Assembly (NCBI GenBank): GCA_963971425.1
Contig: OZ020519.1
Span: 14,896,028 to 14,960,027 of the forward strand
Direction of reading: 5' to 3'
Source: Bryoerythrophyllum caledonicum
Lineage: Eukaryota; Streptophyta; Bryopsida; Pottiales; Pottiaceae
Length of the DNA: 64,000 nt
Position 1 is the first letter of the stretch. The number at the start of each line of letters is the position of its first letter. The position numbers were made by a program, and so were the translations under genes. The notes under the pieces are model-generated. The model made no database searches. It worked only from the letters and a program-made list of their open reading frames with translations, and was not told the origin of the DNA. Below, one piece after another: positions 23,931 to 63,772 of this stretch.

Positions 23931-23942
23931 TGTATGTTATTG
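23931..23942. repeat. Left target-site duplication of the LINE
   Basis: TGTATGTTATTG here is identical to 39,791-39,802, directly after the element's TTC tail. Twelve matching bases at exactly the two ends are the expected mark of target-primed reverse transcription and fix the element borders. Confidence 0.95.
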
Positions 23943-24329
23943 GAACAAGAGATGAGTGAGGAATAGCTCCGCTCTTCCCGGTGAGGAGGGTGTGGGTGTT
24001 AGGCAAATTTTGAAGCACAACGCAAGAAGAGTTGCTGGGCCTTCTTGCAGATCCCGGTTGTGCTTTACATTGCTGAAGAAATGGTGTGGGATACTCAATA
24101 TGTTGGGCAGGGAAGTTAGATCTAGTGATAGATCGAAACCTGCAACTAGATCAATGGAAATGTGGTGATGGGAGAGTAGGGCAGATCTGAAGCGGGGCCC
24201 TGTGTTGGACTGGATCCAGAACACAGATCCCAGATTGATGTTGCCAGGTTCAGATCTGGATCTAGATCTGAAAGAGAGTGTCACCCACACATTGCACCCA
24301 CACCTGCCGAGCCAGGATGCGAAATAGAA

Positions 24330-27300
24330 GTGATGAAGCATACACACAGGCAGAAGAGGAAGCAAGTGAAGCAACACATAGATCAATCTCCACAACGAGA
24401 AGATGTACTTCTCTCCCCCCTTGCATGCTTTATGATTATCAATATTTGCTTTTGTACATGTTATTTCTTTGCATCTAACTCGCAGGAACACCAAGACCAA
24501 AGTACAGTACATGACCACACCTGCACCAACTACAACCTCGAACAAATATATCCGAACCGACTAAATGAGAAGCAGCCACAAAGCGACTACGAAGACCTGA
24601 TGCATCAGCAAGCCATTGACCTGTTTCAACGCAAAAACGTTAAGGTAAGTATTTCTAACCCACCCTTGCGACTCTCTACACTAACTCTCCGCTACCACAT
24701 TACTGCAGTTACCAGAAACACCTCGGGAGGGAAAAGCAGTAGTCGCAACAAACCAAGAGCGCACCATGAAGAACATAGTAGAACAGCAGATGTTGTAATC
24801 GAGAGGAGTGGAAACATCGAGAAGAGCTTCAGAAACACCTGCTGCAACCACATCAGCGAAATCAACACTCGCAGGAGCTGCCCCAGCATCAACAAACACC
24901 GACTGCACCAACATCTCAACCGAAATGAAACCACAAATGGAGACAACGAGCAAGAGAAACGAGCAAGCATCCAGACTCAAGTTGTTGAACGGTCACCTGC
25001 CAGAAACGTAGAGGTAAGCGTCCTGAACCCTAACTCCTTCACACACCTAGACCATAGCCGCCACCTAAGTAAAGCATGCAACAGAAACCTAAACGATATG
25101 CACCACCGATGTAGAAATCAAAGGTGCAGAACCTCTCCCATAGTTAGCAAGACCAAAATACACACAATTCTGATGAAACTGCACCTGCCTGAAGCTATGA
25201 ACGTATGCCACAGAGTCAATCATGTAGTAAGCAAACACAAATCGCACAGAGTAATAACGAAAAGACAACTACCTCTAAAACCGAATGAACGAAGCAATAG
25301 AATAGCATTACAAATTGCATATATAAGAAATGAGAGACACAATGCATCACACAACACTTCAAAGTGGGAGCCCTGTACAGAGTTAAAGATCAGAGTTAGA
25401 GAGCATAGTACCAGAGTGAGAGAGCGATGGAGAGATCTAGAGCGACAGAGTAGAGTGTCGCAGTGCATCGCCTCTAGAAGTAGCTCCAAGCTGTGGAGGG
25501 CAAAAGAACAGTCGGCGACTGATAGAGACGGCGAGGGGACGACTCATACGGCCGCGATTGAAGAAGTGTCGAAGACGAACACGAAGAAGACAGGAGACGA
25601 GGAGTGGTGCAAAGAGGAGGAGCGGAACACAATCGAGGAGGACCAGCACATCGATGCAGAGGAGCTGTTGAGAGAAGACGAGAAACAAGTGAAGGACGCC
25701 GAGGAGCTTGTGAGCGACGCAGAGGAGCCGTGGAGCAACAGTGAGGAGTCATTGAGCGACATCGAGGAGCCACTGAAAGACGTCAAGGAACCGTTGAGCG
25801 ACATAGAAGAGCCGGTCAGTGACGTTGAAGGGCCGTTGAGCGACGCCGAGGAATCGCTCGGAGATGTCGAGGAATCACTCCGAGACGCCGAGGTGCCGTT
25901 GAGGTACGCCGGGAAGCCGGTGGACGACGTCGAGGAGTTGCTGAGCTACGTTGGGGAGCAGGGGAACGGCGCCGAAGAGCGAGTGATTGACGCCAAGGAG
26001 CGGCACAACAGCGTGGAGGAGTCGTTTAGTGACGCGGAGAAGCGGCGCAACAACGACGAGGAACCACCCAACAACGCGGAGGTGTCGTACAGCGACGCGG
26101 AGACGCTGTACAACAACGTAGAGGGGAGCTACAGAGACGTGGAGGAGCGATACAGAGACGCGGAGGAACGGTCAACCTGCAGTCTCCAGAAAACCGATGT
26201 CAGCACGACAGGAGAGAAGACGAGGAGAGAGAAGACTAGAAAGAAAGAAGCCTGGATTGTGAGACTAGCCCTGAATGCTTTCAGAAGGACGAAGTTCAGA
26301 AAAAGAGCAAACAGTGGCAGTGGCCCACTAACGCGAGGAACAGGAACCACCAGTCAAGAAGATACAAGTGAACCAGCAGAGGATACACAAGTTGCAGAAG
26401 ATGTCAAAGCTGAGGGAAAGATACCAAGCTTAAGTCAAACTTTGGTAAACAACAACCTGAAGGACCAAACGAAGCTATGCATGTACACTTCGACAGCACA
26501 GAAGGCGATAGTTGCAACTGAGGCGGTCGAGAGAAGAAGGAAGACCCACACTGAAGGAATTGCACCAATCTTCAAATCAGGTATGTACACTACCCATTGT
26601 ATGTACTTTGCTATGATAATATCATCCTATGTTGATCTTCACTTCCTCCCAATCTTGCACTCTATAAGCCCACAACTCAATTTGTGGAATGATGCAAGAA
26701 AGGGGCTGATAGGAAGTACGAATGAGAATATCCATCCACTTATACAATCCAATGTTGTTTCTATCAGAATGTTTGCTCTTCAAACTACTCCCCCTGCAAA
26801 GAGATCTCTTGAGGAGTGCATGAAAGAAGTTTCACCTCAAAAACCCAATGGGGCAGGAGTATCTTCCCTCCAAAAGAAAGCTAAGGCAGCTAAGCTGCCA
26901 AGGCCGCCTTATTGGTTGGGGTTTCATGCGCTCAATGCATTAGGGCAACTCAACAACACACCAATGGAAGAGGTACTATCAGTCAGTGAATACGTGAAAA
27001 AAGGTATGTCACATGAGGAAGGGCTGGAATGTCAAGATGCAATCATTTCATTTGCTCATGTATGTCAAGAAGTGTGGGGCCCCACAAAGGAAGAGGGAAG
27101 TGAGAACCATTTTAACCTCACCCAACTCCCACACGAAGTAGAGGTTGATGAGTATGGATTTTCGCTGGATTATCAAATCGCCATCTTCTTTGAGATAGAT
27201 GAAGGAAGTTATAAAAGAAATATGGTCTTTGAGCTAGTCAAAGAAAGGCTTCAAAAAATGAACATTGCAATTGGAGAGTTGTTGGGTGAGCCTATTGCAA

Positions 27301-28418
27301 TCATGTGCTTCCATAAATCTGACAAATGGAGTGGAAGTGTGAAACTGCATTTGAAAAACCCACAAGTGGATGGCAAAGCTCTTCTATCAGGAGAATGTCC
27401 CTTCATTCTTAAGCTGGATGAAACCCTTTACATGCGTGGCAAGGTATGTAAATCCTATGATTCTTTTGCAATTGCCAGTCTCCTCTCTGTAAGGATCAAC
27501 AGTCCCTCACTTAAAGGAAAAACATGGTACAATATTTTCTATGAGATTGTGGATGAAGGTTTTAAGAAGGGTATAAATTATGAGATAACTACCATCCAGA
27601 AGAATGAAAATGCTGACTTTGCTTGGATTAAGGCACCAACCCCCGAAGAAGCTAAAAAGATAAAAGCAAAGAAAATTGCCTTTGAAAATGAAATCTTTGA
27701 GGCAAAGTTTGCAAACAGAGGTACATTGTCAGAGGAGGATAAATCAAGGAAAAATGCTTTGATATTAATCATCCGGAACCTAAACAAGGTCAAGTCCCCA
27801 AAAGAACTAGAAGATGCAATCAAAGAACACATGGGAGAAGCAAATGTGGTGGATATCTATTTCCGCCTTGAAAATGGCAAGCATGTAGGATCTTGTAACG
27901 TCCAGTGTGTCAATGCTGCCATATATAAGAAATTTGTTAAAAAAAGCCATAAATTGCTAGGAAAATATGTTGAATTCTTCCCTCACCCAAAAAGTATGGA
28001 TGGGTCCAACAAACCAAGTCAAGAGGAACTTACCCGCCTAGGCTTCTCAGACATCAATACTGCTATTGCAAATACTGTAGAGACACTGAAAGTTGTACCT
28101 GCTGATGGCTGCTCCAAAAAAGACATTAACGCCATGATTGAGACTGCTATCCAGAAAAGTGCCTCACAGACCATACAAGAGATTCGCTCAGAAATGGGCA
28201 GCCTCAAGGAAACTATTGTAAAAGAGGCCCAGGCCTACGCTGACACAATTACAAACACCTCTACCGAGGAGATCAGGAGAGAAATGCGTGTACTTCGCAA
28301 CCAACTCAGCAACTCGATGGCATTTTTCGAAAATGCTCTTCCAGCCTTGCAAGCTCCACCAGCACCGCAAGCTCTACTAGCCCTGCAGGAAACTACCAGC
28401 ATGGACCAGTCAAACTAG
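24330..28418 (+). CDS. LINE ORF1 protein: acidic heptad repeats, RRM-like folds, C-terminal coiled coil (up to 1362 aa)
   Basis: This is the first open frame of the LINE. The true start is unclear; the first ATG of the frame is at 24,333, but the first 350 codons are Arg/His/Asn-rich with intron-like signals and may be leader. Codons for about 22 acidic seven-residue units (SDAEEPL type) lie at 25,694-26,170. The C-terminal third looks folded: around residues 945-1030, 1050-1120 and 1140-1200 three beta-alpha-beta blocks (e.g. ALILIIRNLNKV ... VGSCNVQC ... KYVEFFPHP) resemble RRMs, which are common in LINE ORF1 proteins. Residues 1263-1335 are a predicted coiled coil. The likely role is binding and packaging the element RNA. 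No CCHC knuckle is seen. It ends 89 bases before ORF2. Confidence 0.7.
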   Translation: MMKHTHRQKRKQVKQHIDQSPQREDVLLSPLACFMIINICFCTCYFFASNSQEHQDQSTVHDHTCTNYNLEQIYPNRLNEKQPQSDYEDLMHQQAIDLFQRKNVKVSISNPPLRLSTLTLRYHITAVTRNTSGGKSSSRNKPRAHHEEHSRTADVVIERSGNIEKSFRNTCCNHISEINTRRSCPSINKHRLHQHLNRNETTNGDNEQEKRASIQTQVVERSPARNVEVSVLNPNSFTHLDHSRHLSKACNRNLNDMHHRCRNQRCRTSPIVSKTKIHTILMKLHLPEAMNVCHRVNHVVSKHKSHRVITKRQLPLKPNERSNRIALQIAYIRNERHNASHNTSKWEPCTELKIRVREHSTRVRERWRDLERQSRVSQCIASRSSSKLWRAKEQSATDRDGEGTTHTAAIEEVSKTNTKKTGDEEWCKEEERNTIEEDQHIDAEELLREDEKQVKDAEELVSDAEEPWSNSEESLSDIEEPLKDVKEPLSDIEEPVSDVEGPLSDAEESLGDVEESLRDAEVPLRYAGKPVDDVEELLSYVGEQGNGAEERVIDAKERHNSVEESFSDAEKRRNNDEEPPNNAEVSYSDAETLYNNVEGSYRDVEERYRDAEERSTCSLQKTDVSTTGEKTRREKTRKKEAWIVRLALNAFRRTKFRKRANSGSGPLTRGTGTTSQEDTSEPAEDTQVAEDVKAEGKIPSLSQTLVNNNLKDQTKLCMYTSTAQKAIVATEAVERRRKTHTEGIAPIFKSGMYTTHCMYFAMIISSYVDLHFLPILHSISPQLNLWNDARKGLIGSTNENIHPLIQSNVVSIRMFALQTTPPAKRSLEECMKEVSPQKPNGAGVSSLQKKAKAAKLPRPPYWLGFHALNALGQLNNTPMEEVLSVSEYVKKGMSHEEGLECQDAIISFAHVCQEVWGPTKEEGSENHFNLTQLPHEVEVDEYGFSLDYQIAIFFEIDEGSYKRNMVFELVKERLQKMNIAIGELLGEPIAIMCFHKSDKWSGSVKLHLKNPQVDGKALLSGECPFILKLDETLYMRGKVCKSYDSFAIASLLSVRINSPSLKGKTWYNIFYEIVDEGFKKGINYEITTIQKNENADFAWIKAPTPEEAKKIKAKKIAFENEIFEAKFANRGTLSEEDKSRKNALILIIRNLNKVKSPKELEDAIKEHMGEANVVDIYFRLENGKHVGSCNVQCVNAAIYKKFVKKSHKLLGKYVEFFPHPKSMDGSNKPSQEELTRLGFSDINTAIANTVETLKVVPADGCSKKDINAMIETAIQKSASQTIQEIRSEMGSLKETIVKEAQAYADTITNTSTEEIRREMRVLRNQLSNSMAFFENALPALQAPPAPQALLALQETTSMDQSN
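24645..24708 (+). other. Candidate small intron in the LINE 5' region
   Basis: AAG/GTAAGT at 24,645 is followed by a CTAAC branch-like motif, a pyrimidine tract and TACTGCAG ending at 24,708. The 64-base length is not a multiple of three. Similar signals occur nearby (acceptor CTAACTCGCAG ending 24,484; donor GAG/GTAAGC at 25,015; donor CAG/GTATGT at 26,581). Splicing of the leader would change which upstream codons belong to ORF1. Confidence 0.35.
25694..26170 (+). repeat. 21-bp coding minisatellite in LINE ORF1
   Basis: About 22 tandem units of 21 bases, close to 'agcgacgccgaggagccgtt' plus 'g', encode a seven-residue acidic repeat (SDAEEPL, SDIEEPV, RDVEERY and so on). Units diverge toward the 3' end. 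Confidence 0.85.
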
Positions 28419-28507
28419 ATTGGACCAATGTAGCGATAGCACTAGTACTTAGAAAGTATAAACTCCAAAAAGTATTTATTTTTAATACTACAGACAAACA
28501 ATATTAT

Positions 28508-31500
28508 ATGCTACATTCTATACACATCATTTACCACGTTGATTCCTTTGATACGATTCTCTTCTTTCTCCCTCTCCTACCTATATACCAAAAATATTTC
28601 ACCTATCTCCCTTTTCCTATATATTATCCTTTCTTTATATACTCTTTCTTTACTTTTACCTATATATTCTTTTCTTTTATTTTCATTACATATTCTTTTA
28701 TTTTTTATAAACTTTTTATACTATTTTCTTTACATACGACTATTGTTATATATTCTTTTTTCTTACATCCCTACCTTTTCCTTATCATTATAAAATCATC
28801 CCTTATCTTTACATGTGGCTTATCTTCACTTATAAAACTTTATTGTCATACTTACTACCACCTTAAAAATTTTAACATTATTTCACCATTCCTCACTTGC
28901 AGATTCGTGCATGGCTCAATTCCACCTGTAGCTCCTTGCATTAATTCCTATAACACCCTTTCACACAAATCAACCCACACTTGTGTCAAGGGTTTTAACA
29001 TTATAAAGCCCCAAATTAGAACTTTACAACTTGCGCCTATATTACTATTAACTGTAGCAAGTACAAAAACACTTAATATCAAATACACATTAACTACCAT
29101 TACACTCACTATAAACATAATTACAAAGCCAACAAGAAACACAAACAAAGACATATACATGCTTTCAAACAAACACAACCTCAACAACATAAAAATAATA
29201 AAAGCTCTAAAATTCACACAAAAATCAAAAATTATGAAACACAATATCAAACCCACACATTATAAACTTCTACTACTTTTAGGCGGAGAATTAGAAATAA
29301 ATCCGGGACCGTATACGATGAAGTATACAAATACAGCTTCATATACATGTACGGGGACAGATACATATACGGATACATATACAAATACATATCAGAATAC
29401 GGACACAAATACATCTACAAGTACAGATACGAATACAGGCATAAACACATGTACGGGAAAAATTTCTAATGTAAAAATAAATACAAGAAACACATGTACG
29501 GGAAAAAATGGAATAAATAATAGAAGGAAGAAGAAAATAAGTATCATAACTACAATGAACAGTAATACGTATACTGATACGTACACCAGCAAGTACACTG
29601 ATATATATACTCGTACGATTAAAGACAAATACACTATAATATATATTGATACCGATATAAATACGGATACATATACGGAGACACATACAAATACAGATAA
29701 GAATACAGAGACGAATACATCTACAAGTACAGATACAAATACAAGCATAAACACATATACGAAAAAAAATACTAATGTAAATACAAATACAAGTAAGGAT
29801 ATGGACACGGATACAGATATAGGTATAAATACTCAAACAACAACTTATCAACCATTGCAAAAACCAATATACAAAATAGAAAGAATGATAATAATAATAT
29901 ACTACTTCTCACACAAACTAAGTAAAAATTCCAAAAAGAAAAGTATCAAAACCAAAATAAAAAATAAAAGGAATAAGAGAAAAGATGGGATTAAAATAAA
30001 TAATAGAAGGAAAAAGAAAATAAGTATCATAACTACATATAACAAAATAGGAAACAATATAAATGAAAACAATCATAAATTTTTTGTAATAAAGATACAT
30101 AAGGGTAGAAGGGATTCTAAACCCAAAAACCATCAAAAGGCAAGGAATACGAAAATGGCTAAAAATAGAAAAATGAAGGAGAGTAAAAAGAGATATAATA
30201 AATTAAATAGAAAGAAGATAGATATTTATAAAATTTCAGAAGTTTTAATTAGAGCAAGTAATATTAAAAATAAAATAACAAAAATGGAGAGGATATGTAA
30301 GAAGAAAAGAAAGGGTAAAGTAGAAAACCATTATCATAAGAAAAGAAATAATAAGAACATAACAATAAACAATAGAACTAAAAATAGAAAATCCTCCCTA
30401 AGAAATTCAAAAATAAGGGATGGAAAATGCACCAAATTAGTAATGGGAATTAGTTATAATAAGAATACCAATGTGAAGGACATAGCTATAAACAACAGTT
30501 CTAAAAATAGAAAATGCTTCCTAAGAAATTCAAAAATAAGGGATGGAAAATGCACCAAATTAGTAATGGGAATTAGTTATAATAAGAATACAAATGTGAA
30601 GAACATAGCTATAAACAGCAGTACTAAAAATAGAAAATGCTTCCTAAGAAATTCAAAAATAAGGGATGGAAAATGCACCAAATTAGTAATGGGAATTAGT
30701 TATAATAAGAATACAAATGTGAAGAACATAGCTATAAACAGCAGTATTAAAAATAGAATATCCTTCCTAAGAAATCAAAAAATAAGGGATGGAAAATACA
30801 CCAAATTAGTAATGGGAATTAGTTACAATAAGAATACAAATGTGAAGAACATAGCTATAAACAGCAGTACTAAAAATAGAATATCATTCCTAAGAAATCC
30901 AAAAATTAGGGATGGAAAATGCACCAAATTAGCAATGGGAATAAATAATAATAAGAATACAATTAGAAAGACTATTTCTAAAAACAGCAATACTAAAAAT
31001 AGAATAGGCTTCCTAAGAAATTCAAAAATGACGGATGGAAAATTAACCAAACTTGTAATGAGAAATAAAAATGTCAGAGTAAAAATAAATAGAGAAGATA
31101 GGAATAATAAAAGAGTACAGATTAAAAATAGAAATTGGAATATAAACTACATGGATAAATGGAAAATTAATAGTAATATTAAAAACTATATATATAAAGT
31201 TGGGGAGAGTTTGCGATTAAATAGTAGAAATTTGTTGAGAGTAAGTAGAATTATTAAAATAGGAGGTGGGATTCATGTTTCGCCGGCCGGGTGGGCGCCT
31301 CAGGCGCCAAAAATAGACTTACTAAAAATAGAAATTCTAATAAAAGTAAGAATATATACGAATTTGATTAAAATAAATATCAATCTGTTTTTAGAAATCA
31401 TAGTTTTAGACAAATTATGTTTAGAAAGAAATCTTTTAGAAAACTCATTTTTTCAATATACGGGTACATATACTGATACGTATACTGATACGTATACTGA

Positions 31501-34500
31501 TACGTATACTGATACATACACCGATGAGTATACTTATAAATATACTGATATAAATACTGGTATATATACTGATACACATACTGGTATGTATATAAATACA
31601 AATACTTACACTTGTACAAATGCAAATACCAATACAAATAGTGGTACGTGTACTCATACGAATACTAACACAAATACTAGCAAAGATACTGATACAAATA
31701 CCAAGACAAAAACCGTGACTTATACTAATACAAACATACAAAAGAATACTAATATAATACCACATAAAACTACATACACACACACAAAGACAACCACACA
31801 CCATCAACGAAACACATACATATACATACACACATACAAAGACAAACACACACAATCAAAAAAACACAAATACCAAAGCCACATTCAAAAACAAAAAATT
31901 CTAAAACAAAACAAGAAACCCATCTACTACAAACTACTAATATTAATTGGAGGAGACATGGAGACTAACCCAAGACCCATGCCGAACATATTAAAAAGAC
32001 ACCCCGCTTCGCACAAAAAGTGTACCAAAACATATTTTATACCAAATACTAATACAAACACCAAAACAAACAATTGTACAAACCACAAAGTATATAATAA
32101 CACCGCATATGAAAAAAAGGATTTAAAAGCCACTTTAAAAACCAACATAAACCCACATACAAATAGTCTTAAACATAATAGTTACATATGCACACGGACA
32201 AAAACAACCAAGGTAAAATACAACCAATTTTACATACATCCATACTCTACTAAAACAAAAACAACCACAAAAAACACATGGACTAAAAATAAACTAAAGA
32301 CGAAAACAACTACACCTACTATAAAAATAAACAAACCCACAACTCATACACAAAATACAAATATCCACCTACCCCCAAACCAACAAGTCATTAATAACAC
32401 AACAAAGCTTTTAAAATACATCACTAAACATATATACCACAAACTTCTACTACTTCTAGGAGGAGACATTGAAACCAACCCGGGACCCATGCCTAATATA
32501 CTAAAAAGACATCCTACATCACATAAGAAAAATGCCAAAATCTACTTTATACCTAATACCATAAAACTCCAACCAGAATATGAACACATTGCAAAACCCT
32601 TCGCACCATTTCTAAAAAACACACATACATTACACCACATACAAAACACTTCCCACCCAAACATTGCCCAATACATACAACAAAAAAATACGCATCCACC
32701 ACCCCACATCTTATATGCACTAATAATCACTACTCATCCAAACATAGATGAATGTAACCAACTTCTAAATCCACAAAATTGGAACACAATTACATGGACT
32801 AATACACTCCTACAAACCTTACTAACCTTACAAAACCCACCAGAACGACACATTTACACTCCACACCCCTATACTGAATTCCTAGTAGACAACCAAAATA
32901 TTATAAACCATGAGAACTCAATACATAAAAGACTATACGACTTCTTACATAGTCAAGACATACCACCCTCAAATGATATAATAAAACTAAAATTTCCTTA
33001 CCTTCCTAATAACCTCATAAATGAATCACTAAAATGCCTAGACCCTATACCAGAATACACCCACCCACCCCCACCTCTTCCCTACATCCCTCCTCAAAAC
33101 CAAAATCAAAACATTAGACTAAACCAAGAAAATACATACATAATCACATGGAATGCCTCCTCACTAAACACTGCCCTTCCTAGCTTACAAACTCTAGTCG
33201 CAAACACAGACACACCACCGGCTCTTATAGTTATACAAGAAACAAAACTAACCGCCACAAAATCTACAAAATATATACAAAATATATTTCAAGACTATAA
33301 ACTCATCTTTAACAATACACATGCACTTACAAGATGCATGCAACAAAGGAGACCATACACACCGGGCCGCGGTGGCCTCCTTACATTAATACACAAAAAA
33401 TATACATTCCCCGGCAACATCAACAAAATCCCTACCCCAATGCACATATCACCATACATTCAAATAATTAAAATCACTAATCACCCACTACAATCGTGGT
33501 TAATCTTTCACATGTATATGCCATCCCATCCCGAAGATACTAGATTTCTCTTAGATATACAAAACACTATTACAACCCATATTAATAATCATCCCAATCA
33601 TACATACCTATTATGTGGAGACTTCAATAGAGACATAGCGCTAATTGGCCGCCAAAATGGAAACCATCACACCCCCCCTCAAAACATTGATTACCAATGG
33701 CGCCGCTTCACAGAAAACTTAAACTTCACTTACATCAATACCGATACACAATTCTCTAGACAAGGTGGCTACAATTATAGTGATTGGAGTCTAATAGATG
33801 GTTTCTATATAAATACAAACAACAACACACAATACACCTCCACAACAAACAAAGATATTATTCTCAATTCGGACCACTCACCCGTACAACTGCACATCCC
33901 AAATAACACACTAATTAGTAGAACTCCTACAATCCCAAACAAAGACACTATACGCATACTCAACCCCATCCCAAAAACCAACATAGAAAAATTCAACACA
34001 AAATTCTTCGAAGAAAACACCGTACAAATAGACTCCCTCATAAACACTCTTGAAATCAATAGTCAATTAACACAAACACAATGGCAAGAAGCATGCCACT
34101 CTCTAGACAAACTCATCAATAAAATCTCTGATACACTAGAACAAACTTGTAGAGCACACCCAATACCCCAAATGACAAACAGAACCTCTGAACAAGGCGG
34201 ATATCTACCCCGCAAACTTTCTAAAACTTGGAAACAACACTTAACCACATACCATACCATACGTAAAACCATTAGAATTGTAAAAAACAACCCTCAATGG
34301 CGTAACCACCCCATACACAACGAACTACTAACTATACAACACATCCAAATCCCTACCCCGCCGCCTCCGGACCTTCCCCACGATACATGGATAAAAGATA
34401 TCGCGATAATTGCAAAAAATGCCAACATACAAGCCCGGAAAATAATCACAAAATACACAAAAGAAAACATTAAAAAAGCCATCTCAAAATACAGACAACT

Positions 34501-37500
34501 ATACGAAATCAGCCCCAAAAAAATTAACAAAAAAGTCTTTAAAAACCTTGAATCCCCACCAATGGATTGTATCAAAGATCAATATAATAATATTCTAACT
34601 AACCCCGAAGACATTGCGAATGAAATATTCAACCAACAAACAAAAACCAATAGACCAACAGTACCAACATGTAATTACCAGCCACAACATACAATAGAAT
34701 GCACATGTGCAATACGCCAATACCCTTGGCACGACCTAGACGGATATACCCTTGACAAACGGGGCGAACCAGAAATTCCACTACATAAATACCTCAACAG
34801 AGCCACATACGACACATGCCTCCAAAATCTTGGAAATAATAAAGCCCCAGGCCCAGACCGCATACCAAATTCAATACTGAAAAACATGCCTCCAAGATTT
34901 CATAAACTACTATTCCTATTCTTTTCTCACTGCTATAAACGAAAACAAATACCAAATTCATGGAAAACAAGTGCAACAATTCTATTATACAAAAAAGGCG
35001 ATCCATCCATGCTACCCAATCATAGACCAATTGCACTAGCTAACACAATATATAAGTTTTTTACCAGTACACTCACCCACATACTATCCTCATACGGCGA
35101 AAAATTCAAAATCCTACATGATAGTCAAGAAGGATTTAGAGCGGAGAGAAGTACCGCACGGCAAATACAAACTATAATAGCCGCATTAGAAGACGCAAAA
35201 TTTACTAACCAAGATATATACATACTATACGTGGACTTCAAAAATGCCTTTGGCTCAATTGATCATGCCAGACTTCTAGCAATAATGTCAGACCTTGGCT
35301 ACCCAAAAGAGGCAACTACACTTGTTGGAAACATCTATTCCCAATCATCTACTTGCTATATCGGCGAACACTTTGGGAAAACAAAACCTATACCCATCCA
35401 AAGAGGAACTATACAAGGGGACACCCTTAGCCCATACTTATTTATTATATTTTTAGAACCACTACTTAGATGGCTAGAAAGAGGCAATAATGGATATACT
35501 TTCGGCACATCACAAGTCACAATAAATTCCGCCGCATACGCAGATGACCTAGCCACCATAACTAACAAAATCAAATCAATCCAAATACAACTCCATAAAA
35601 TTGATAGATATTGTAAATGGGCTGGCATGGATGTGGGAGTTCCAAAATGTGCGGCTACCGGATGCCCAAACAAATCTAAATTGAACCCTACCACTTTCAA
35701 AGCCCTAATGCAAACCTCTAACATCAACTACCGCAACCAACCAATCCCTATACTACACCAAAACGAACCATACATATACCTAGGTACAAATCTTGTTCCC
35801 TCACTAAAATGGAAAATCCAAATCCACACTACAACCACAAAGCTCATCAAACAATGCAAAGAACTAACAACATGCCCAGCCACCATGAAACAAAAAATAA
35901 AAATGGTTGATACCGTACTACGCCCAGGTGTGGCATACAGTTTCTACGGTGTACCATACTCTATGCCAGCTATCAAAAAACTTGATAAAAAAATAATAGC
36001 CATACAAAAAACCATATGTGGATTACCAAAATGTATGTCAAACGCAATAACCCAACTACCACATAACCTATTTGGACTTGAAGCTTTCTCCCTCAAAAAC
36101 GCATACCTCCGATGTATAGGCGAACAACTGCAAAATGCTCTAAACGATAAAGGAAGACTTGGGAAAATATATAATGGATTAACTCACTATGTCCTTGCCC
36201 AATATGGTGGCGCTGAAAACATACCGAGAATTAAAAAAAGTGACTGCATAAGATCACCAATAACACGAACATTCTTCTTATTAAAACATATAGCTAAAGC
36301 CCACCTTAAAAGTACGCTCCCGAACTTCCTCACTAATCCTACGACACTAGAAATACTATGGCGCCAAGAAACATTAAATCATAACACACTCAATGCCCAA
36401 CTCTCCCAAAAGCTTCTACAAAAACTCCTCTCAAAAAATATTTTTGAACTAAACCAAATTACCTTACCTAACGGTACACACATCATGAACAATGAGGACT
36501 TCAAAACCTACCACTTCACCCCATCTAAACTAATAAAGAGTGCCCTAAATGTTGCTAAACAACTATTTTGCCACATAACATGCCCCACTATATGTCATAC
36601 TCCTTGCAACATACACCCATACTCTCATACACTTAAAGATCCATTCATCACCTTCAACAATAACATCATCCCAAGAAATATTCCCACACCAACCAATCCC
36701 CCTAACCCTCCACATACATACCACCCCCGCCCCCCAACATACATCCCCAAAAACCCTACCAAATACCCCATTAATAATATCATAAACCATAAACATATCC
36801 AACACACAGACACAAATAACATGCAAAATACCTACACAAAATATCTATGCCAATGGCAACACAATGATAATACATACAATAAATGGCTCCCCCAAAGAGA
36901 CCTTTTTCCACGGCATGACACCAATACCTCCACACATAACACTGAAAAATTAAAACAATACTACCTAAAGATCCAAAACAAAATATACTCAGATATCATC
37001 CTTGCCCACCATCCACAAGAACAATCCTCAGACTCAAGGTGCGTAACGCCACCCATAATTATCCCACTCTTAAACATCTACACAACAGAATGCAACCCCG
37101 AAAATGATATCCTTACATCCTCAAACACAATTCAAATAAATAACAATCAAGCACATCTATACGAAGAAAACGGCCGACATTTACACACCATACCCATTAC
37201 CCGGCTCCAATGGTTATGGAACCAATATCATATAAAATTACAATCCCCTACAAACATTGAACCAACAACCCAACCCTTTGAAACCGAACTAATATGGCTT
37301 TACCAAAGATATAAATATCGAATACCAAAAACTGACCCCCTCAAAAATGCGCAATACACAATACCCACCCCCATTTTAGACTCACTGATATCATCCTTTA
37401 ACATTGAACACTCATACTTTTCCTCCCCGATTACATGTCCTACCAAACTAAATAAATTCTACTCACCGTACGAAAGAGACAAAATATTTGGATCCCTAGG

Positions 37501-39517
37501 CAAGGCCTTTGAACACAAATGGATCGGAAATGGAATAGCTCACCCCCACAACGAGGAAGACATAGAACAAGCCATACATTGGGCTAGACTTGCCGCCAAA
37601 CACGATCCAAATAACACAAAAACAATCATCGTCACACCGAACAACAATTGGTACCAAAACAACAGCCAACATTCAAACCCATTCCCAGATTCCCACATCA
37701 TTGCATTATTCGAAGCAGACACAATACCATACGAAGAACCTAATATCCCACCCGAGCTAAAAAAACCCCGAATAGAGCCATCTACATTACAAATACTATG
37801 CGTCCATCATCAAAATCAAAACCTGGGCTCCCTAGAACAACTTGCGGAACTTACCTCCATATCAGACAATCTAGACATACAACGACCATACACAAAACCG
37901 GCCCCACCAACACCCATACAAACCCCAGTAAACAAAAGTAAAAAATGGTCAAAATTAAACTATGATAACAACACATTAAACTACTCCGTCATACCTCCCC
38001 CTCTCCCAGACTACCCAACTCATACCACACCAAAATTTAACCCCGCATACAGTTATTACACCGACGGCTCCTTTAAACCACCGGAACAAATTAGCCCGGG
38101 CTCTTGGCGAAGAGAAAAAGCTGGCTATGGCATATATAATTCTACCAAAGAAATTAAACTAGCCAAAAGACTCCATGGACTACAAAATATCCTCAGAGCA
38201 GAACTCATGGCCATTCACAAAACACTACAAATCATTACAACAAAATACAAAAATGAACCTGCACATATATTCACCGATTGCATAAATGCACTCTACCTAC
38301 TAAACACTCAAATAACACACCCAACCCTTCACAACAGTCACCCCGACCAAACCATACTAACATCAATGGTACAAATGTTACAAAAACGTACACAAATCAC
38401 AACCCTTCACAAAGTCAGAGCCCATGCCAACATTGATGGCAATGAACAAGCAGACAAACTTGCAAAAGAAGGCCGAGAAAAAACACACAAAAAAGCCAAA
38501 GACCCTCACGAACATGCTCATGCCACCCCATACTACTTTCAAAAAGAAGATTGGCCTTCCAAAGAAGATACCCCCGACAAAGGCCCAATTAGATTTCTCG
38601 GCAAATATCTCAAAAAACAAGACCTCTACAACAACCTGGATACAATCTCAGAAAATATTCCTAACATAGAAAAATGGACTAACAATAACGACATAGACAA
38701 TGAACTCTCTACAAACTTTTGGAAAAACCCCATCATCTCAGACTCACAAATAACGTGCCTCATCAAATTCCGTACGGGTCAATACATGGGAAACGCTCGC
38801 AAACAACTCTTCTTTGGAATAGAAAGATTCCCATCCATAACATGCCCCATATGCCCCTCAACGGACCCGGACACATGGCTACATGTGCTACTCAAATGCC
38901 AAAACCACCACATACACTCTCTAATTGTTAAAAGACATAACAAAGCGGTATGGGAAGTCCGAAAACTAATCACCTCCTACAATAAATCGAGATGTTTCAT
39001 ACTTATGAACGCCGGCACTTTTAATAGCAATCCACAAGAAAACACGGTCCCCCCATGGCTACTTCCATGCTCATGTATGACCCAAAGATGTCATTGCAAT
39101 GCTAGGCTCAAACCGGACATTCTTTGTGTCAAAGGTTTACCATACAACGACCCACCACCCGAGAACATCAACCAAGACTACACCATTCAATTCATCGAAT
39201 TTACATATTGCAACGATAGATTCTCCCCGGAAACAATACAAAACAAAATAGATAAATACCAACCCCTCATAGACGACATCATTGCCCTCGGCTGGAATGT
39301 GGACCCCCTTATTGTTATCACATCCGGCGCTCGTGCCACCACCTTTATCCCATCTATGAAAACTCTCGAAGATACCTTCAAGATACCCATTGATACAATT
39401 AAAACTACCTTTAAAAACATCAACACCATCGCTATTCAACATGCCATGTCTATTTTACTGCATAAACGCAAAATCGAAAACAACCAAGTCCTCCCTGATA
39501 GGCAAGACCCCCCTTAG
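28508..39517 (+). CDS. LINE ORF2 polyprotein: 2A-like motifs, APE, RT, PCIF1-like domain, RNase H, CCHC, restriction-like nuclease (3669 aa)
   Basis: One uninterrupted frame. Residues 1-110 are very hydrophobic. 2A-like motifs end at residues 268 (GGELEINPGP), 1157 (GGDMETNPRP) and 1327 (GGDIETNPGP). Between the first two lie Thr/Asn/Tyr-rich hexamer-encoded repeats and six basic 41-residue repeats. APE endonuclease: about 1540-1795 (IQETKL, GDFNRD, SDHSPV). RT: about 2100-2450 (NKAPGPDRIPNS, YVDFKNAFGSIDH, IQGDTLSPYLF, YADD at about 2342). A PCIF1-like methyltransferase-fold segment is proposed at about 2976-3088. RNase H: about 3180-3325 (YTDGSF, AELMAI, FTDCINALYLLN, HANIDGNEQADKLAKEG). 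Zinc finger: CPIC ... H ... C at about 3447. C-terminal nuclease: KPDILCV, IEFTYCNDRF, KIDKYQPLI (3534-3590). It copies the element RNA at the nicked target. The start codon is uncertain; translation may begin anywhere before the first 2A. Confidence 0.9.
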   Translation: MLHSIHIIYHVDSFDTILFFLPLLPIYQKYFTYLPFPIYYPFFIYSFFTFTYIFFSFIFITYSFIFYKLFILFSLHTTIVIYSFFLHPYLFLIIIKSSLIFTCGLSSLIKLYCHTYYHLKNFNIISPFLTCRFVHGSIPPVAPCINSYNTLSHKSTHTCVKGFNIIKPQIRTLQLAPILLLTVASTKTLNIKYTLTTITLTINIITKPTRNTNKDIYMLSNKHNLNNIKIIKALKFTQKSKIMKHNIKPTHYKLLLLLGGELEINPGPYTMKYTNTASYTCTGTDTYTDTYTNTYQNTDTNTSTSTDTNTGINTCTGKISNVKINTRNTCTGKNGINNRRKKKISIITTMNSNTYTDTYTSKYTDIYTRTIKDKYTIIYIDTDINTDTYTETHTNTDKNTETNTSTSTDTNTSINTYTKKNTNVNTNTSKDMDTDTDIGINTQTTTYQPLQKPIYKIERMIIIIYYFSHKLSKNSKKKSIKTKIKNKRNKRKDGIKINNRRKKKISIITTYNKIGNNINENNHKFFVIKIHKGRRDSKPKNHQKARNTKMAKNRKMKESKKRYNKLNRKKIDIYKISEVLIRASNIKNKITKMERICKKKRKGKVENHYHKKRNNKNITINNRTKNRKSSLRNSKIRDGKCTKLVMGISYNKNTNVKDIAINNSSKNRKCFLRNSKIRDGKCTKLVMGISYNKNTNVKNIAINSSTKNRKCFLRNSKIRDGKCTKLVMGISYNKNTNVKNIAINSSIKNRISFLRNQKIRDGKYTKLVMGISYNKNTNVKNIAINSSTKNRISFLRNPKIRDGKCTKLAMGINNNKNTIRKTISKNSNTKNRIGFLRNSKMTDGKLTKLVMRNKNVRVKINREDRNNKRVQIKNRNWNINYMDKWKINSNIKNYIYKVGESLRLNSRNLLRVSRIIKIGGGIHVSPAGWAPQAPKIDLLKIEILIKVRIYTNLIKININLFLEIIVLDKLCLERNLLENSFFQYTGTYTDTYTDTYTDTYTDTYTDEYTYKYTDINTGIYTDTHTGMYINTNTYTCTNANTNTNSGTCTHTNTNTNTSKDTDTNTKTKTVTYTNTNIQKNTNIIPHKTTYTHTKTTTHHQRNTYIYIHTYKDKHTQSKKHKYQSHIQKQKILKQNKKPIYYKLLILIGGDMETNPRPMPNILKRHPASHKKCTKTYFIPNTNTNTKTNNCTNHKVYNNTAYEKKDLKATLKTNINPHTNSLKHNSYICTRTKTTKVKYNQFYIHPYSTKTKTTTKNTWTKNKLKTKTTTPTIKINKPTTHTQNTNIHLPPNQQVINNTTKLLKYITKHIYHKLLLLLGGDIETNPGPMPNILKRHPTSHKKNAKIYFIPNTIKLQPEYEHIAKPFAPFLKNTHTLHHIQNTSHPNIAQYIQQKNTHPPPHILYALIITTHPNIDECNQLLNPQNWNTITWTNTLLQTLLTLQNPPERHIYTPHPYTEFLVDNQNIINHENSIHKRLYDFLHSQDIPPSNDIIKLKFPYLPNNLINESLKCLDPIPEYTHPPPPLPYIPPQNQNQNIRLNQENTYIITWNASSLNTALPSLQTLVANTDTPPALIVIQETKLTATKSTKYIQNIFQDYKLIFNNTHALTRCMQQRRPYTPGRGGLLTLIHKKYTFPGNINKIPTPMHISPYIQIIKITNHPLQSWLIFHMYMPSHPEDTRFLLDIQNTITTHINNHPNHTYLLCGDFNRDIALIGRQNGNHHTPPQNIDYQWRRFTENLNFTYINTDTQFSRQGGYNYSDWSLIDGFYINTNNNTQYTSTTNKDIILNSDHSPVQLHIPNNTLISRTPTIPNKDTIRILNPIPKTNIEKFNTKFFEENTVQIDSLINTLEINSQLTQTQWQEACHSLDKLINKISDTLEQTCRAHPIPQMTNRTSEQGGYLPRKLSKTWKQHLTTYHTIRKTIRIVKNNPQWRNHPIHNELLTIQHIQIPTPPPPDLPHDTWIKDIAIIAKNANIQARKIITKYTKENIKKAISKYRQLYEISPKKINKKVFKNLESPPMDCIKDQYNNILTNPEDIANEIFNQQTKTNRPTVPTCNYQPQHTIECTCAIRQYPWHDLDGYTLDKRGEPEIPLHKYLNRATYDTCLQNLGNNKAPGPDRIPNSILKNMPPRFHKLLFLFFSHCYKRKQIPNSWKTSATILLYKKGDPSMLPNHRPIALANTIYKFFTSTLTHILSSYGEKFKILHDSQEGFRAERSTARQIQTIIAALEDAKFTNQDIYILYVDFKNAFGSIDHARLLAIMSDLGYPKEATTLVGNIYSQSSTCYIGEHFGKTKPIPIQRGTIQGDTLSPYLFIIFLEPLLRWLERGNNGYTFGTSQVTINSAAYADDLATITNKIKSIQIQLHKIDRYCKWAGMDVGVPKCAATGCPNKSKLNPTTFKALMQTSNINYRNQPIPILHQNEPYIYLGTNLVPSLKWKIQIHTTTTKLIKQCKELTTCPATMKQKIKMVDTVLRPGVAYSFYGVPYSMPAIKKLDKKIIAIQKTICGLPKCMSNAITQLPHNLFGLEAFSLKNAYLRCIGEQLQNALNDKGRLGKIYNGLTHYVLAQYGGAENIPRIKKSDCIRSPITRTFFLLKHIAKAHLKSTLPNFLTNPTTLEILWRQETLNHNTLNAQLSQKLLQKLLSKNIFELNQITLPNGTHIMNNEDFKTYHFTPSKLIKSALNVAKQLFCHITCPTICHTPCNIHPYSHTLKDPFITFNNNIIPRNIPTPTNPPNPPHTYHPRPPTYIPKNPTKYPINNIINHKHIQHTDTNNMQNTYTKYLCQWQHNDNTYNKWLPQRDLFPRHDTNTSTHNTEKLKQYYLKIQNKIYSDIILAHHPQEQSSDSRCVTPPIIIPLLNIYTTECNPENDILTSSNTIQINNNQAHLYEENGRHLHTIPITRLQWLWNQYHIKLQSPTNIEPTTQPFETELIWLYQRYKYRIPKTDPLKNAQYTIPTPILDSLISSFNIEHSYFSSPITCPTKLNKFYSPYERDKIFGSLGKAFEHKWIGNGIAHPHNEEDIEQAIHWARLAAKHDPNNTKTIIVTPNNNWYQNNSQHSNPFPDSHIIALFEADTIPYEEPNIPPELKKPRIEPSTLQILCVHHQNQNLGSLEQLAELTSISDNLDIQRPYTKPAPPTPIQTPVNKSKKWSKLNYDNNTLNYSVIPPPLPDYPTHTTPKFNPAYSYYTDGSFKPPEQISPGSWRREKAGYGIYNSTKEIKLAKRLHGLQNILRAELMAIHKTLQIITTKYKNEPAHIFTDCINALYLLNTQITHPTLHNSHPDQTILTSMVQMLQKRTQITTLHKVRAHANIDGNEQADKLAKEGREKTHKKAKDPHEHAHATPYYFQKEDWPSKEDTPDKGPIRFLGKYLKKQDLYNNLDTISENIPNIEKWTNNNDIDNELSTNFWKNPIISDSQITCLIKFRTGQYMGNARKQLFFGIERFPSITCPICPSTDPDTWLHVLLKCQNHHIHSLIVKRHNKAVWEVRKLITSYNKSRCFILMNAGTFNSNPQENTVPPWLLPCSCMTQRCHCNARLKPDILCVKGLPYNDPPPENINQDYTIQFIEFTYCNDRFSPETIQNKIDKYQPLIDDIIALGWNVDPLIVITSGARATTFIPSMKTLEDTFKIPIDTIKTTFKNINTIAIQHAMSILLHKRKIENNQVLPDRQDPP
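29282..29311 (+). other. 2A-like ribosome-skipping motif 1
   Basis: Encodes GGELEINPGP preceded by a leucine run, fitting the 2A consensus D(V/I)ExNPG/P except for Glu in place of the first Asp. Skipping would release residues 1-267 from the rest. The Asp-to-Glu change probably lowers efficiency. Confidence 0.6.
29330..29850 (+). repeat. Hexanucleotide coding array 1 (ACNNAT type)
   Basis: Runs of six-base units such as ACATAT, ACGGAT, ACAAAT and ACAGAT encode alternating Thr-x dipeptides (TDTYTNTYQNTDTN). The array is interrupted near 29,460-29,560 by a small AT-rich segment and contains many potential N-x-T sites. Confidence 0.8.
30363..31065 (+). repeat. Six tandem 123-bp units in LINE ORF2
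   Basis: Each unit encodes about 41 residues around KNRKCFLRNSKIRDGKCTKL followed by VMGISYNKNTNVKN. Units two to four are nearly identical and the outer ones are diverged, as expected from unequal exchange within the array. The encoded segment is strongly basic. Confidence 0.9.
31457..31750 (+). repeat. Hexanucleotide coding array 2 (TATACTGATACG type)
   Basis: Four near-perfect 12-base units of TATACTGATACG are followed by diverged hexamers encoding alternating Thr with Asp, Tyr or Asn. It resembles the array at 29,330-29,850 and lies just upstream of the second 2A-like motif. Confidence 0.85.
31949..31978 (+). other. 2A-like motif 2, probably inactive
   Basis: Encodes GGDMETNPRP. The conserved Gly of NPGP is Arg; in studied 2A peptides the NPG/P core is needed for skipping, so this copy is probably dead. 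It is followed by MPNILKRHPASHKK, which recurs after motif 3. Confidence 0.65.
32459..32488 (+). other. 2A-like motif 3, canonical
   Basis: Encodes GGDIETNPGP after a KLLLLL run, a full match to the 2A consensus. Skipping here would release a 2343-residue enzyme polyprotein beginning with Pro 1327 and carrying all catalytic domains. Confidence 0.8.
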
Positions 39518-39558
39518 GAACTTCGCCACTTTGTCTCTTCTTGATTGGTTGCCTGTTT

Positions 39559-39591
<33 letters not shown>

Positions 39592-39790
39592 TAGTTAGTT
39601 TGGTCGTGGTTGGTCGTTGTCGGTTGGTTTCTGGCTACTCGTTACATAGTGTCTACCTTCGAAAGAGGGAAGTAGTTCCAGTTCGCTAATTCCTTGTCCG
39701 GTGGGCATGGTCTTAGCAATGGAACGAACAGACACTTTATTCACGCCGGTTCCCTTCGGGAACCGGCGTTCTTCTTCTTCTTCTTCTTCT
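39518..39790 (+). promoter_or_regulatory. LINE 3' UTR with stem-loop and TTC tail
   Basis: The 3' UTR holds a run of 30 T (39,561-39,590), a block shared with the antisense relic at 1880-1985, and a perfect 12-bp stem at 39,743-39,769 (ACGCCGGTTCCC, loop TTC, then the complement). It ends in about seven TTC units that abut the target-site duplication. In LINEs the 3' end commonly contains the structure recognised by the reverse transcriptase; that role here is inference. Confidence 0.75.
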
Positions 39791-39802
39791 TGTATGTTAT
39801 TG
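39791..39802. repeat. Right target-site duplication of the LINE
   Basis: TGTATGTTATTG, identical to 23,931-23,942. Confidence 0.95.
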
Positions 39803-40723
39803 ATTTTTTTCTCTTTCCACTCATTAATCATTTTCATTTAAAATAAACTATTGTACCAAATGGTCAAGTTTGGTATTAGAAAAAATCGAATATAGCATTC
39901 AAAGTCTTTTGAAAATTTATTTTTTAAATAAAATATTTATTCTTAAAAATCAATTATTTATTCTCAAAATATTTACTCATATTCAATGATTAATTTTATT
40001 ATGGTTTCTTTGAAATTATTTAAATTAATTAATAAGACTTACTAAAATTTAAATTCAATGAAATTTATATTAATGAAAGATAATAAAAGAAGTACAAACA
40101 ATTTGAAAATATATCATAAAAAAACCTACCAATTTTTGTAGGATTTTAAAATCCTCACTATTTTTGTATTGAATATTTTACTCATTTGATACTATTTCAA
40201 TAGTTTTAATTGTTTTTGAAAGTATCAATAAATAAAATATGCATAACATTATAGCACATACTACAATGTGTATATACGTGCCTAAAGTATGATACATGTC
40301 CAACATTAATTGAATGGGAAGCAAGAATGTAATAATTATTAGTTTATACAAGAAGATTACATGGAATTTGAGAACACTTAACAATTAAAACAACAAAAAT
40401 GATCAAGTATTTGGTTTAATTTTGAGTTGGTTTTTTCAATTATGATTTTTATTTTTTTGCTAAACTAAATTGTGTGATACACTACAATGGTCAATTTACT
40501 TACCAATGACTATTGGTATTATCAAAAGCACCACTTGCCACGATGTCTTTTTTATTCTCTATCATTATCTTAGGTTTTGAGTACAATTTTTATTTTTTTA
40601 AATCATATTTCATGCTCAACAATCATTTTGTCAAACATCAAGTGTACTAGGTTTAAGATTGAAAATTGATGAAGCTTTTATCATATTTATAGAACTTTTT
40701 CAAACACCTTTTGACATTACACA
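39803..40723. other. AT-rich intergenic region upstream of the 14-3-3 gene
   Basis: No gene or repeat is recognised. The last 100 bases should hold the 14-3-3 promoter and 5' UTR; a TATA-like 'catatttatag' lies at about 40,682. Confidence 0.5.
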
Positions 40724-42019
<1,296 letters not shown>

Positions 42020-48900: not shown

Positions 48901-48981
48901 TTGCATGACTTCCTGGATTCCAGAGGTTTTCGGGTGAGGTCCGTTCCACCTAGCGAAAGACTAACTCAAGAAACGACTTAG
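45971..48981 (+). CDS. MULE transposase with DDE core and SWIM zinc finger (4 exons)
   Basis: Exons by GT-AG signals: 45971-46491, 46611-47355, 47449-47648, 47728-48981. Domains in order: a FAR1/MULE-type N-terminal region (VGCQCRFYVKR ... FCSEHVDTQG), the catalytic core with D in AIDGTFATNNKN, YPLFTMMVFDEWRNGVPVAF, D in FVLDDADNEINSL, LCLWHVRRAW, E in AIESYHSNMK, and a SWIM finger (VCQC ... ICKH). Exon joins restore the family pattern exactly (for example NNKN/YPLF and NSL/REVW). Within the last exon the frame changes once between about 48,300 and 48,370 with no plausible intron, so this copy probably carries a frameshift. The enzyme would bind the element ends and cut and join DNA in the nucleus. 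Introns 1 and 3 contain two and three TTATCG motifs. Confidence 0.8.
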
Positions 48982-62700: not shown

Positions 62701-63772
62701 GTCACTTTGCTGGAGAAGCAACCGCGAGGAAAGTCTTATTGGCTGGCTATTGGTGGCCAGAATTATTTAAAGATGCTAATTATTATACAAGGAAGTGTGA
62801 TCCTTGTCAGCGTATTGGAAAACCGACCCCAACTTCGGCTATGCCACTTCAACCCCTATTGGCATTAGCCCCATTCGAAAAATGGGGTATCGACTTCGTT
62901 AGACCCATTGCCCCAGCCACCAGACATGGGCGTAATCGGTATATATTGGTTGCAACTGACTATGCAACAAAATGGGCGGAGGCCGCAGCTACAAAGTACG
63001 ACGATGCTAAAACGGTGGCGAAATTCTTGTATGAAAATATTTTATCACGCTATGGGTGTCCCAAGGAATTAATAAGTGACCGCGGAACTCATTTTTTGAA
63101 TGAAACTATTGAGTTACTCACGAAGAATTTTTTCATAAAGCATCGGAAGACCAGTCCCTATCACCCACGTGCGAATGGACAGACGGAGAAAACAAATGGC
63201 ATACTATGTAAGATCCTTACTAAAACAATTGCCGGAGCGGCAACCGACTGGGATGAAAAACTATGGGGAGCTTTATGGGCTTACCGTACAGCCTACAAGG
63301 TTACCACAAAATATACACCATTCCAATTGGTGTACGGTCAAGAGGCCATCATTCCCATTGAATTTGAGATACCCACCTTACGGGTCGCAATTGAACACCG
63401 ATTGGGAGAAGAAGAAAGTTTAAAGGCCCGGTTATTCCAATTAGAATCTTTGGACGAAGAACGAAGAATGGCGGTGCATAATACTTATGTGGCTCAACAA
63501 AAGCGGAAGTCATTCTATGATTCAAAAATCCGACATAAAGAGTTCCAAGTTGGCAACTTAGTTCTCCTTTATGACAGTCGATTTTTTAAATTTCCAGGAA
63601 AGCTCCAAATGCATTGGTTGGGTCCATATGAAGTAGTGGATATTAAACCAAATGGCTCGGCTCAATTAAAAGATTTTGAGGGGAATTTACTTCCCACTCA
63701 AATTAATGGCTATCGGCTAAAACCCTATTTTACATAAGCCGAGGACGGCTTAAAAATTGGGTGTGAAGGGGG
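56706..63772 (+). mobile_element. Ty3-type LTR retrotransposon fossil, gag-pol region (Tat/Athila-like, no chromodomain)
   Basis: Parts in order: gag capsid region (about 57,780-58,320), four CCHC zinc knuckles (about 58,680-59,300) around a long Asn-rich stretch, an aspartic protease (about 60,200-60,500), reverse transcriptase (about 61,050-61,900) with the FLDGFSGYNQ and FLDDF motifs, RNase H (about 62,040-62,400), and integrase (about 62,680-63,600) with the HHCC and DDE regions. The C-terminus ends in the FPGKLQMHWLGPYEV type common to Tat/Athila elements and no chromodomain follows. The element looks nearly whole, with about one break in pol, and is probably young. The 3' LTR continues past the window. 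Confidence 0.85.
63765..63772 (+). other. Polypurine tract
   Basis: GAAGGGGG directly before TGTCTATA, the probable first bases of the 3' LTR. Confidence 0.7.

What the first reader, a model, noticed from the sequence alone, without database searches (positions are those of the whole stretch)
23931..39802. A complete 15.8-kb LINE with a perfect target-site duplication and open frames
The 12-bp TGTATGTTATTG at both ends fixes the element at 23,943-39,790. Most LINEs are 4-8 kb. Two long frames (up to 1362 and 3669 codons) are uninterrupted, so the copy looks young and potentially mobile. Such a size in a plant LINE is not something I know to be described.
Basis: partly seen in the sequence, partly recalled or inferred. 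Interest (0 to 1): 0.9.

Follow-up and report, generated by a model that had tools for sequence, protein, structure and literature searches.

The report
Giant plant dual-endonuclease LINE with StopGo
This is a complete, recently copied 15.8-kb jumping gene in a plant-lineage genome that carries two different DNA-cutting domains, a protein-release signal best known from viruses, and a worn-down copy of an RNA-cap methyltransferase that is nevertheless kept under strong selection.

Summary
One 15,848-bp LINE (23,943-39,790) lies between perfect 12-bp target-site duplications. The host assembly holds further copies with the same two ends; all 7 copies whose two ends were read (this one and 6 others) have different exact 12-14 bp duplications. 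In 14 of 22 scored copies the 2,150-residue enzymatic stretch has no stop.

It is not a usual plant LINE (L1 or RTE). ORF2 encodes an APE endonuclease, reverse transcriptase, a weak chromodomain-like stretch, a PCIF1/CAPAM-fold domain, RNase H, and an R2-type restriction-like endonuclease. Two endonucleases define Dualen/RandI. A StopGo/2A motif (DIETNPGP) sits just before the conserved enzymatic part; a DNA pattern for it (Gly left free) has 1,444 matches in the host, 0 in the reversed control. The PCIF1-like domain marks a large RT clade (61 of 63 tips, 0 of 16 others) and evolves at dN/dS near 0.1, yet lacks the catalytic Asn here. Much of the size is expandable low-complexity coding sequence.

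In a sister family 39 of 40 scored copies are identical over 692 bp, so amplification is very recent. The host has LFY and dynein heavy chains: a streptophyte. StopGo activity and the PCIF1-like domain's role are inferred, not shown.

The parts
23931..23942 (.). target-site duplication, 5' copy (TGTATGTTATTG)
   Evidence: 7 of 7 paired copies have their own
23943..24332 (+). 5' untranslated region; sequence shared by copies begins at about 23951 (GATGAGTGAGG), the nucleotides before it vary
24333..28418 (+). ORF1, 1,361 aa from the first ATG (frame open from 24180)
26850..28415 (+). conserved ORF1 core; beta-alpha units that look RRM-like (my reading) and a long C-terminal helix in a low-confidence model; the part before it is not conserved
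   Evidence: 8 homologues at 50-56%; model pLDDT 46
28508..39517 (+). ORF2, 3,669 aa (frame open from 28244)
28508..32464 (+). fast-evolving low-complexity N-terminal part of ORF2
   Evidence: dN/dS 0.87 and 0.47 in two comparisons of parts of it
30331..31064 (+). six 123-bp tandem repeats (41 codons each)
29288..29311 (+). 2A-like motif 1 (ELEINPGP, non-canonical)
31955..31978 (+). 2A-like motif 2 (DMETNPRP, Gly lost, presumably dead)
32465..32488 (+). 2A/StopGo motif 3 (DIETNPGP, canonical) directly before the conserved enzymatic part
33128..33907 (+). APE-type endonuclease
   Evidence: PF03372 8.3e-7; motifs QETK, GDFN, SDH
34778..36187 (+). reverse transcriptase and thumb (YVDF, YADD)
   Evidence: PF00078 5.2e-27
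36776..36907 (+). chromodomain-like stretch (weak)
   Evidence: PF00385 E 0.014, below cut-off
37085..37822 (+). PCIF1/CAPAM methyltransferase-fold domain with degenerate catalytic motif
38048..38497 (+). RNase H
38705..39514 (+). CCHC knuckle and R2-type restriction-like endonuclease (RHN, KPD, E)
39591..39768 (+). structured 3' UTR ending in a stable hairpin
   Evidence: z -4.18; covarying pairs
39769..39790 (+). (TTC)n tail
39791..39802 (.). target-site duplication, 3' copy

Best explanation
A complete, recently inserted copy of a giant non-LTR retrotransposon of the dual-endonuclease (Dualen/RandI) type, in a streptophyte genome.

Shown by sequence: ends, target-site duplications, many copies, domain order, and selection on every enzymatic domain.

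Proposed working:
(1) A full-length RNA of about 15.8 kb is made (inferred).
(2) ORF1 supplies an RNA-binding, coiled-coil protein (inferred from a low-confidence fold).
(3) During ORF2 translation the ribosome does StopGo at DIETNPG|P (motif and selection shown, activity inferred). This sheds a dispensable low-complexity leader and releases a protein of about 2,343 residues: APE, RT, chromodomain-like, PCIF1-like, RNase H, RLE.
(4) RT recognises the structured 3' UTR and UUC tail and primes on a nicked target (target-primed reverse transcription, inferred). Two endonucleases are available for the two strand cuts (inferred; both are under similarly strong selection). RNase H removes the RNA (inferred).
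(5) The PCIF1-like domain lacks the catalytic Asn here. It most likely works as a nucleic-acid- or cofactor-binding module acting on the element's RNA or RNA-DNA hybrid (inferred).
Against: No expression, StopGo or enzyme data. The RT could not be placed against reference Dualen sequences (none at hand). Cysteine protease, recalled as a feature of Chlamydomonas Dualen, is not found in this copy, although some relatives carry such domains. Most clade members collected show no NPGP motif, so StopGo is not universal in the clade; some of those proteins may start after it. The ORF1 fold confidence is low. The chromodomain match is below Pfam's cut-off. 8 of 22 scored copies do have stops.
Confidence: 0.85

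Rival explanations
1. Two neighbouring elements, one giving ORF1 and one giving ORF2.
For: ORF1 and ORF2 are in different frames, with 89 nt between the ORF1 stop and the first ORF2 ATG.
Against: Other copies have the same 5' end and a matching 3' end about 15.8 kb apart and share one duplication per copy.
Confidence: 0.01
2. The PCIF1-like domain is an active adenine methyltransferase that marks the element's RNA or new DNA.
For: Fold and Pfam match; 25 of 62 proteins keep Asn at the catalytic position, 22 of them as NPEY.
Against: In this element and P0003 the position reads His (HPHN, HPHS), and HPHN is kept in three diverged host copies; PCIF1 needs N553 and F556 (PMC10544176, passages).
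Confidence: 0.12
3. The PCIF1-like domain is a structural relic without present function.
For: Catalytic motif lost here.
Against: dN/dS 0.09-0.15; present in 61 of 63 tips of the clade. Three of the four linkers measured are at 0.15-0.35 and one short one at 0.06, the domain at 0.11.
Confidence: 0.08
4. The 2A-like motif is a by-product of low-complexity expansion without StopGo activity.
For: Three copies lie in a repeat-rich zone and one has lost Gly; most clade members collected have no NPGP.
Against: The third copy is conserved at the same place in families at about 60% and 85% identity; 1,444 pattern matches in the host, 0 in the reversed control.
Confidence: 0.1

Closest known systems
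Dualen/RandI LINEs (Chlamydomonas; cryptophytes)
   Same: APE plus restriction-like endonuclease (PMC4640811, PMC3636483, passages) and RNase H (PMC4640811, passage); short-repeat tail, as in Chlamydomonas SINEs paired with RandI, (ATT)n or (CTTT)n (PMC3747384, table passages)
   Different: 15.8 kb; PCIF1-like domain and StopGo motif are not named in the passages read; host is a streptophyte; whether classical Dualen also has the PCIF1-like domain could not be tested
R2 (restriction-like endonuclease LINEs)
   Different: From general knowledge R2 has no APE, RNase H or PCIF1-like domain and is rDNA-specific; no common target motif was obvious by eye in 7 insertions
Plant L1 and RTE LINEs
   Same: endonuclease, RT, often RNase H
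   Different: A land-plant review lists only these two LINE superfamilies (PMC9033089, passages); they are APE-only (general knowledge)
L1Tc and sea-urchin LINEs with 2A
   Same: 2A-like sequences in LINE proteins (PMC4981915, passages)
   Different: Described there from trypanosomes and sea urchin; the 2013 paper's title calls the multicellular ones APE-type (cited reference, not read)
PCIF1/CAPAM cap m6Am methyltransferase
   Same: methyltransferase-domain fold (human residues 417-668)
   Different: NPPF replaced (HPHN); the match starts at human residue 417, so the part before it is not matched; sits inside a LINE polyprotein

Membership tests
Dualen/RandI | APE endonuclease upstream of RT | tested here: met
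   PF03372 8.3e-7, motif residues
Dualen/RandI | restriction-like endonuclease downstream of RT | tested here: met
Dualen/RandI | RNase H domain | tested here: met
   PF00075 1.2e-14
Dualen/RandI | RT groups with reference Dualen elements | not testable with these tools
   no reference Dualen sequence was available; tree made only from relatives found
Dualen/RandI | cysteine protease (recalled, not taken as defining) | tested here: not met
   no Pfam match in this copy; Josephin in P0005 (below cut-off), peptidase accessions in some relatives
non-LTR retrotransposon by target priming | target-site duplication and a specific 3' end | tested here: met
PCIF1/CAPAM methyltransferase | methyltransferase-domain fold | tested here: met
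PCIF1/CAPAM methyltransferase | NPPF catalytic motif | tested here: not met
   HPHN in this element; filed as PCIF1-like fold only
StopGo/2A | (D/G/C/N)(V/I)ExNPGP motif | tested here: met
   DIETNPGP; motif definition PMC12846837, abstract passage
StopGo/2A | ribosome skipping activity | not testable with these tools
   needs in vitro translation
chromodomain | Pfam Chromo above cut-off | tested here: inconclusive
   E 0.014, 15.7 bits against cut-off 25.1

The most novel reading that the evidence does not exclude
A whole lineage of dual-endonuclease LINEs captured a CAPAM-type methyltransferase fold once, let its catalytic site decay repeatedly, and kept it as an essential non-catalytic part of the insertion machine. 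Many of the lineage's members free their enzyme by StopGo, so that one plant-lineage genome holds more than a thousand natural StopGo sequences and an ongoing burst of giant LINEs.
Probability: 0.5. Interest if true: 0.85.

Novelty: new variant of a known kind. Interest (0 to 1): 0.74.

Why it matters
LINEs with both endonuclease types are little studied, and a review of land-plant elements lists only L1 and RTE (PMC9033089, passages). Here such elements are abundant, partly intact and apparently still moving in a streptophyte, so the question of what two endonucleases do in target-primed reverse transcription becomes testable. The PCIF1-like domain links a cap methyltransferase fold to retrotransposition. 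The StopGo motif in LINE copies is notable because a 2026 survey found no evidence for natural use of StopGo by plant viruses (PMC12846837, abstract passage).

Tried and rejected
Two-element reading: rejected. An L1 or RTE assignment: rejected by the R2-type endonuclease. Ribozyme at the 5' end: Rfam gave nothing at the gathering score and one chance-like CRISPR-repeat match at E 0.56. tRNA: none. ORF1 identity by Pfam: nothing above cut-off; the structure model is weak and was not searched. The RLE profile made also matches four L1-like outgroup proteins, probably through the zinc knuckle, so its counts (68 of 81) are not proof of endonuclease; fold and motifs are used instead. Chromodomain profile: 2 of 81 proteins, which the call did not name; one is a clade member of at least 2,000 residues, presumably this element; P0003 has the stretch by alignment. 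The script read the catalytic motif one column early and printed 0 of 62; one search counted the right column. Two full-length candidates (C10:21.0 Mb, C2:6.49 Mb) were dropped from the duplication count because the fetched stretch held no 3' end; a sister copy lies within the span of the first. The chance value uses a first-order model of the flanks. The 3' UTR pair counts have no shuffle control. Paper searches for PCIF1 with retroelements and for giant LINEs listed nothing relevant; only listings, and passages of two papers, were seen. A 2016 review of eukaryotic adenine methylation, which I recall as possibly mentioning retroelement-linked methyltransferases, is not held, so priority for that domain is not established.

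Full report
Observation. The 12-bp TGTATGTTATTG occurs twice on the + strand, at 23931-23942 and 39791-39802, and the two long frames are as described. The first 1,519 codons of ORF2 are AT-rich and repetitive, yet have no stop, where a first-order model expects about 120. The host assembly is held without a name: 437,360,962 bases in 894 contigs, the window being C7:14896028-14960027. LFY (best match 104 bits) and dynein heavy chains (10 matches, 9 over the cut-off) point to a streptophyte that probably has flagellate sperm. That inference is from general knowledge; the host's name is unknown.

Other copies. The last 491 bp matched 42 places, only 40 of 3,724 first-look candidates being scored. 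All 30 loci fetched reach the same end, with TTC repeats after the hairpin, and have 30 different sequences after the repeats (for L011 and L017 the printed flank still holds repeats, and in L009 it is another truncated copy). The first 500 bp matched 9 places at 99-100% (rounded) from query position 1-6, self included. Both ends were read for 7 of these 9. All 7 have an exact duplication of 12-14 bp, each different, abutting the TTC tail; none of 200 shuffles per copy reached the observed length. One of the 7 is a mosaic whose 3' end is only 80% identical. Between the duplication and the shared start (GATGAGTGAGG) lie 8-56 variable nucleotides, so the 5' junction carries filler. Two candidates were dropped because no 3' end was in the stretch fetched. 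With the 2,150 residues from APE to RLE as query, 22 copies of 14,563 candidates were scored, all 98-100% identical; 14 of 22 have no stop, 8 have one to four.

A clade, not an oddity. A search with the RT region found 65 long proteins, 2,023 to 4,923 residues; only four carry an organism name, the green alga Cymbomonas tetramitiformis. Only proteins of 0.55-1.75 times the query's length are candidates, so shorter Dualen proteins could not appear. An iterated profile found the PCIF1-like domain in 62 of 81 proteins collected, this one included. On an RT tree of 79 tips, 63 form one clade (support 0.845); 61 of these 63 have the domain, the two without being P0004 (1,228 residues, which ends before the domain's place) and P0034; 0 of 16 other tips have it. 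Of 62 clade members of at least 2,000 residues, 52 match the five profiles APE, RT, PCIF1-like, RNase H and RLE and one more also the chromodomain profile; the order RT, PCIF1-like, RNase H, RLE holds in 58 of 58 with all four. The RLE profile is not fully specific (see Tried and rejected); in a 30-sequence alignment the endonuclease's Pro-Asp pair is at least 90% conserved. Some relatives add Pfam domains whose accessions I recall as Josephin, Ulp1, OTU, PHD and cytosine methyltransferase; SET (P0079) and UCH (P0007) lie outside the clade.

The methyltransferase-like domain. PCIF1 depends on NPPF, and mutants at N553 and F556 are used as inactive forms (PMC10544176, passages). At the aligned place 25 of 62 proteins have Asn, 22 of them as NPEY, 18 have His, and this element reads HPHN. 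Still, dN/dS is 0.11 against the sister family and 0.09-0.15 against four more diverged host copies, and HPHN is kept in three of those four; the printed stretch of the fourth did not show the motif. So the domain is constrained although its catalytic site is not that of PCIF1. A non-catalytic binding role is my inference; that review's reference list cites a catalytic-dead Drosophila Pcif1 that regulates gene expression and fertility (title only seen). The aligned part starts at human residue 417; PCIF1's helical domain, said there to bind the cap, is at least largely not matched.

StopGo. ORF2 holds three 2A-like motifs: ELEINPGP, DMETNPRP and DIETNPGP. Only the last fits the published motif (D/G/C/N)(V/I)ExNPGP (PMC12846837, abstract passage). 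It lies right before the part that is conserved with relative P0006, which has DIETNPGPMPNI at the same place. Between this element and the sister family, codons 1310-1332 differ only synonymously, at 6 codons. The degenerate DNA pattern for GDIETNPxPMP, x being any codon, has 738 + 706 matches in the host and 0 in the reversed control; of the 100 listed, all on contig C1, 91 have Gly at x (my count of the list). Canonical or near-canonical motifs also occur in P0019, P0022, P0031, P0044 and P0055; most other relatives show none. Activity was not tested.

Why so large. ORF1's conserved core is the last 520 or so residues (8 homologues, 50-56%); the rest is not conserved. In ORF2 the first 1,326 residues evolve fast where measured (dN/dS 0.87 and 0.47 in two comparisons) and include six 123-bp repeats. 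About 6.5 kb of the element is therefore poorly conserved coding sequence.

Recent movement. A sister family (L068), 85% identical in protein over 2,699 aligned columns, has the same StopGo site. Of 40 places scored from 4,657 candidates, 39 (the query's own included) are identical over 692 bp and the fortieth nearly so. Ten loci were read: 9 different flanks, two unplaced contigs sharing one. In the PF12237 search of the host, 150 of 2,614 candidates were scored, all over the cut-off, 33 of them with a frame of exactly 3,087 residues and the same score (my count).

3' end. The last 200 nt fold better than all 200 shuffles (z -4.18). In 31 distinct copies several pairs change on both sides, such as C-G to U-A and G-C to A-U (no shuffle control, and some pairs are broken in single copies). 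This fits recognition of the 3' end by the reverse transcriptase, which is inferred. Chlamydomonas SINEs paired with RandI/Dualen also end in short repeats (PMC3747384, table passages).

Novelty. A review of land-plant elements names only L1 and RTE among LINEs (PMC9033089, passages). Dualen is reported for Chlamydomonas and its relatives (PMC8226300, passages) and cryptophytes (PMC12747079, passage). Searches for PCIF1 with retroelements listed no such report, but most subscription papers are not held. I file it as a new variant of a known kind. Assignment to Dualen rests on architecture; a tree with reference Dualen sequences could not be made.

Noticed in passing
L068 (host C8:15553600-15563590) and 39 further places: Sister LINE family with 39 of 40 scored copies identical over 692 bp and a 3,087-residue open frame: a very recent burst.
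   Followed up: partly
L038 and L064 (host C3:14.1 Mb): A copy with a 5' end 98.6% like this element but a 3' end only 80% like it: a mosaic, perhaps from template switching.
   Followed up: no
L002, L003, L007, L015, L017, L019, L020, L023, L028: Nine of 30 loci have diverged LINE pieces of the same kind directly beside the copy, in either orientation.
   Followed up: no
window 40715-41221: Exon of a 14-3-3 gene (PF00244, 2.7e-59) about 0.9 kb downstream of the insertion.
   Followed up: no
window 56821-63737: Ty3/Gypsy element, gag to integrase, in two overlapping frames.
   Followed up: partly
window 45971-48981: Frames that look like a MULE-type transposase (recalled); no Pfam match in the two pieces tested.
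   Followed up: partly
P0058, P0057, P0062, P0064; P0079 outside the clade: LINE proteins with Pfam accessions I recall as cytosine methyltransferase, PHD and SET domains, suggesting repeated capture of chromatin domains.
   Followed up: no
window 39561-39590: A run of 30 T just downstream of the ORF2 stop, upstream of the structured 3' UTR.
   Followed up: no
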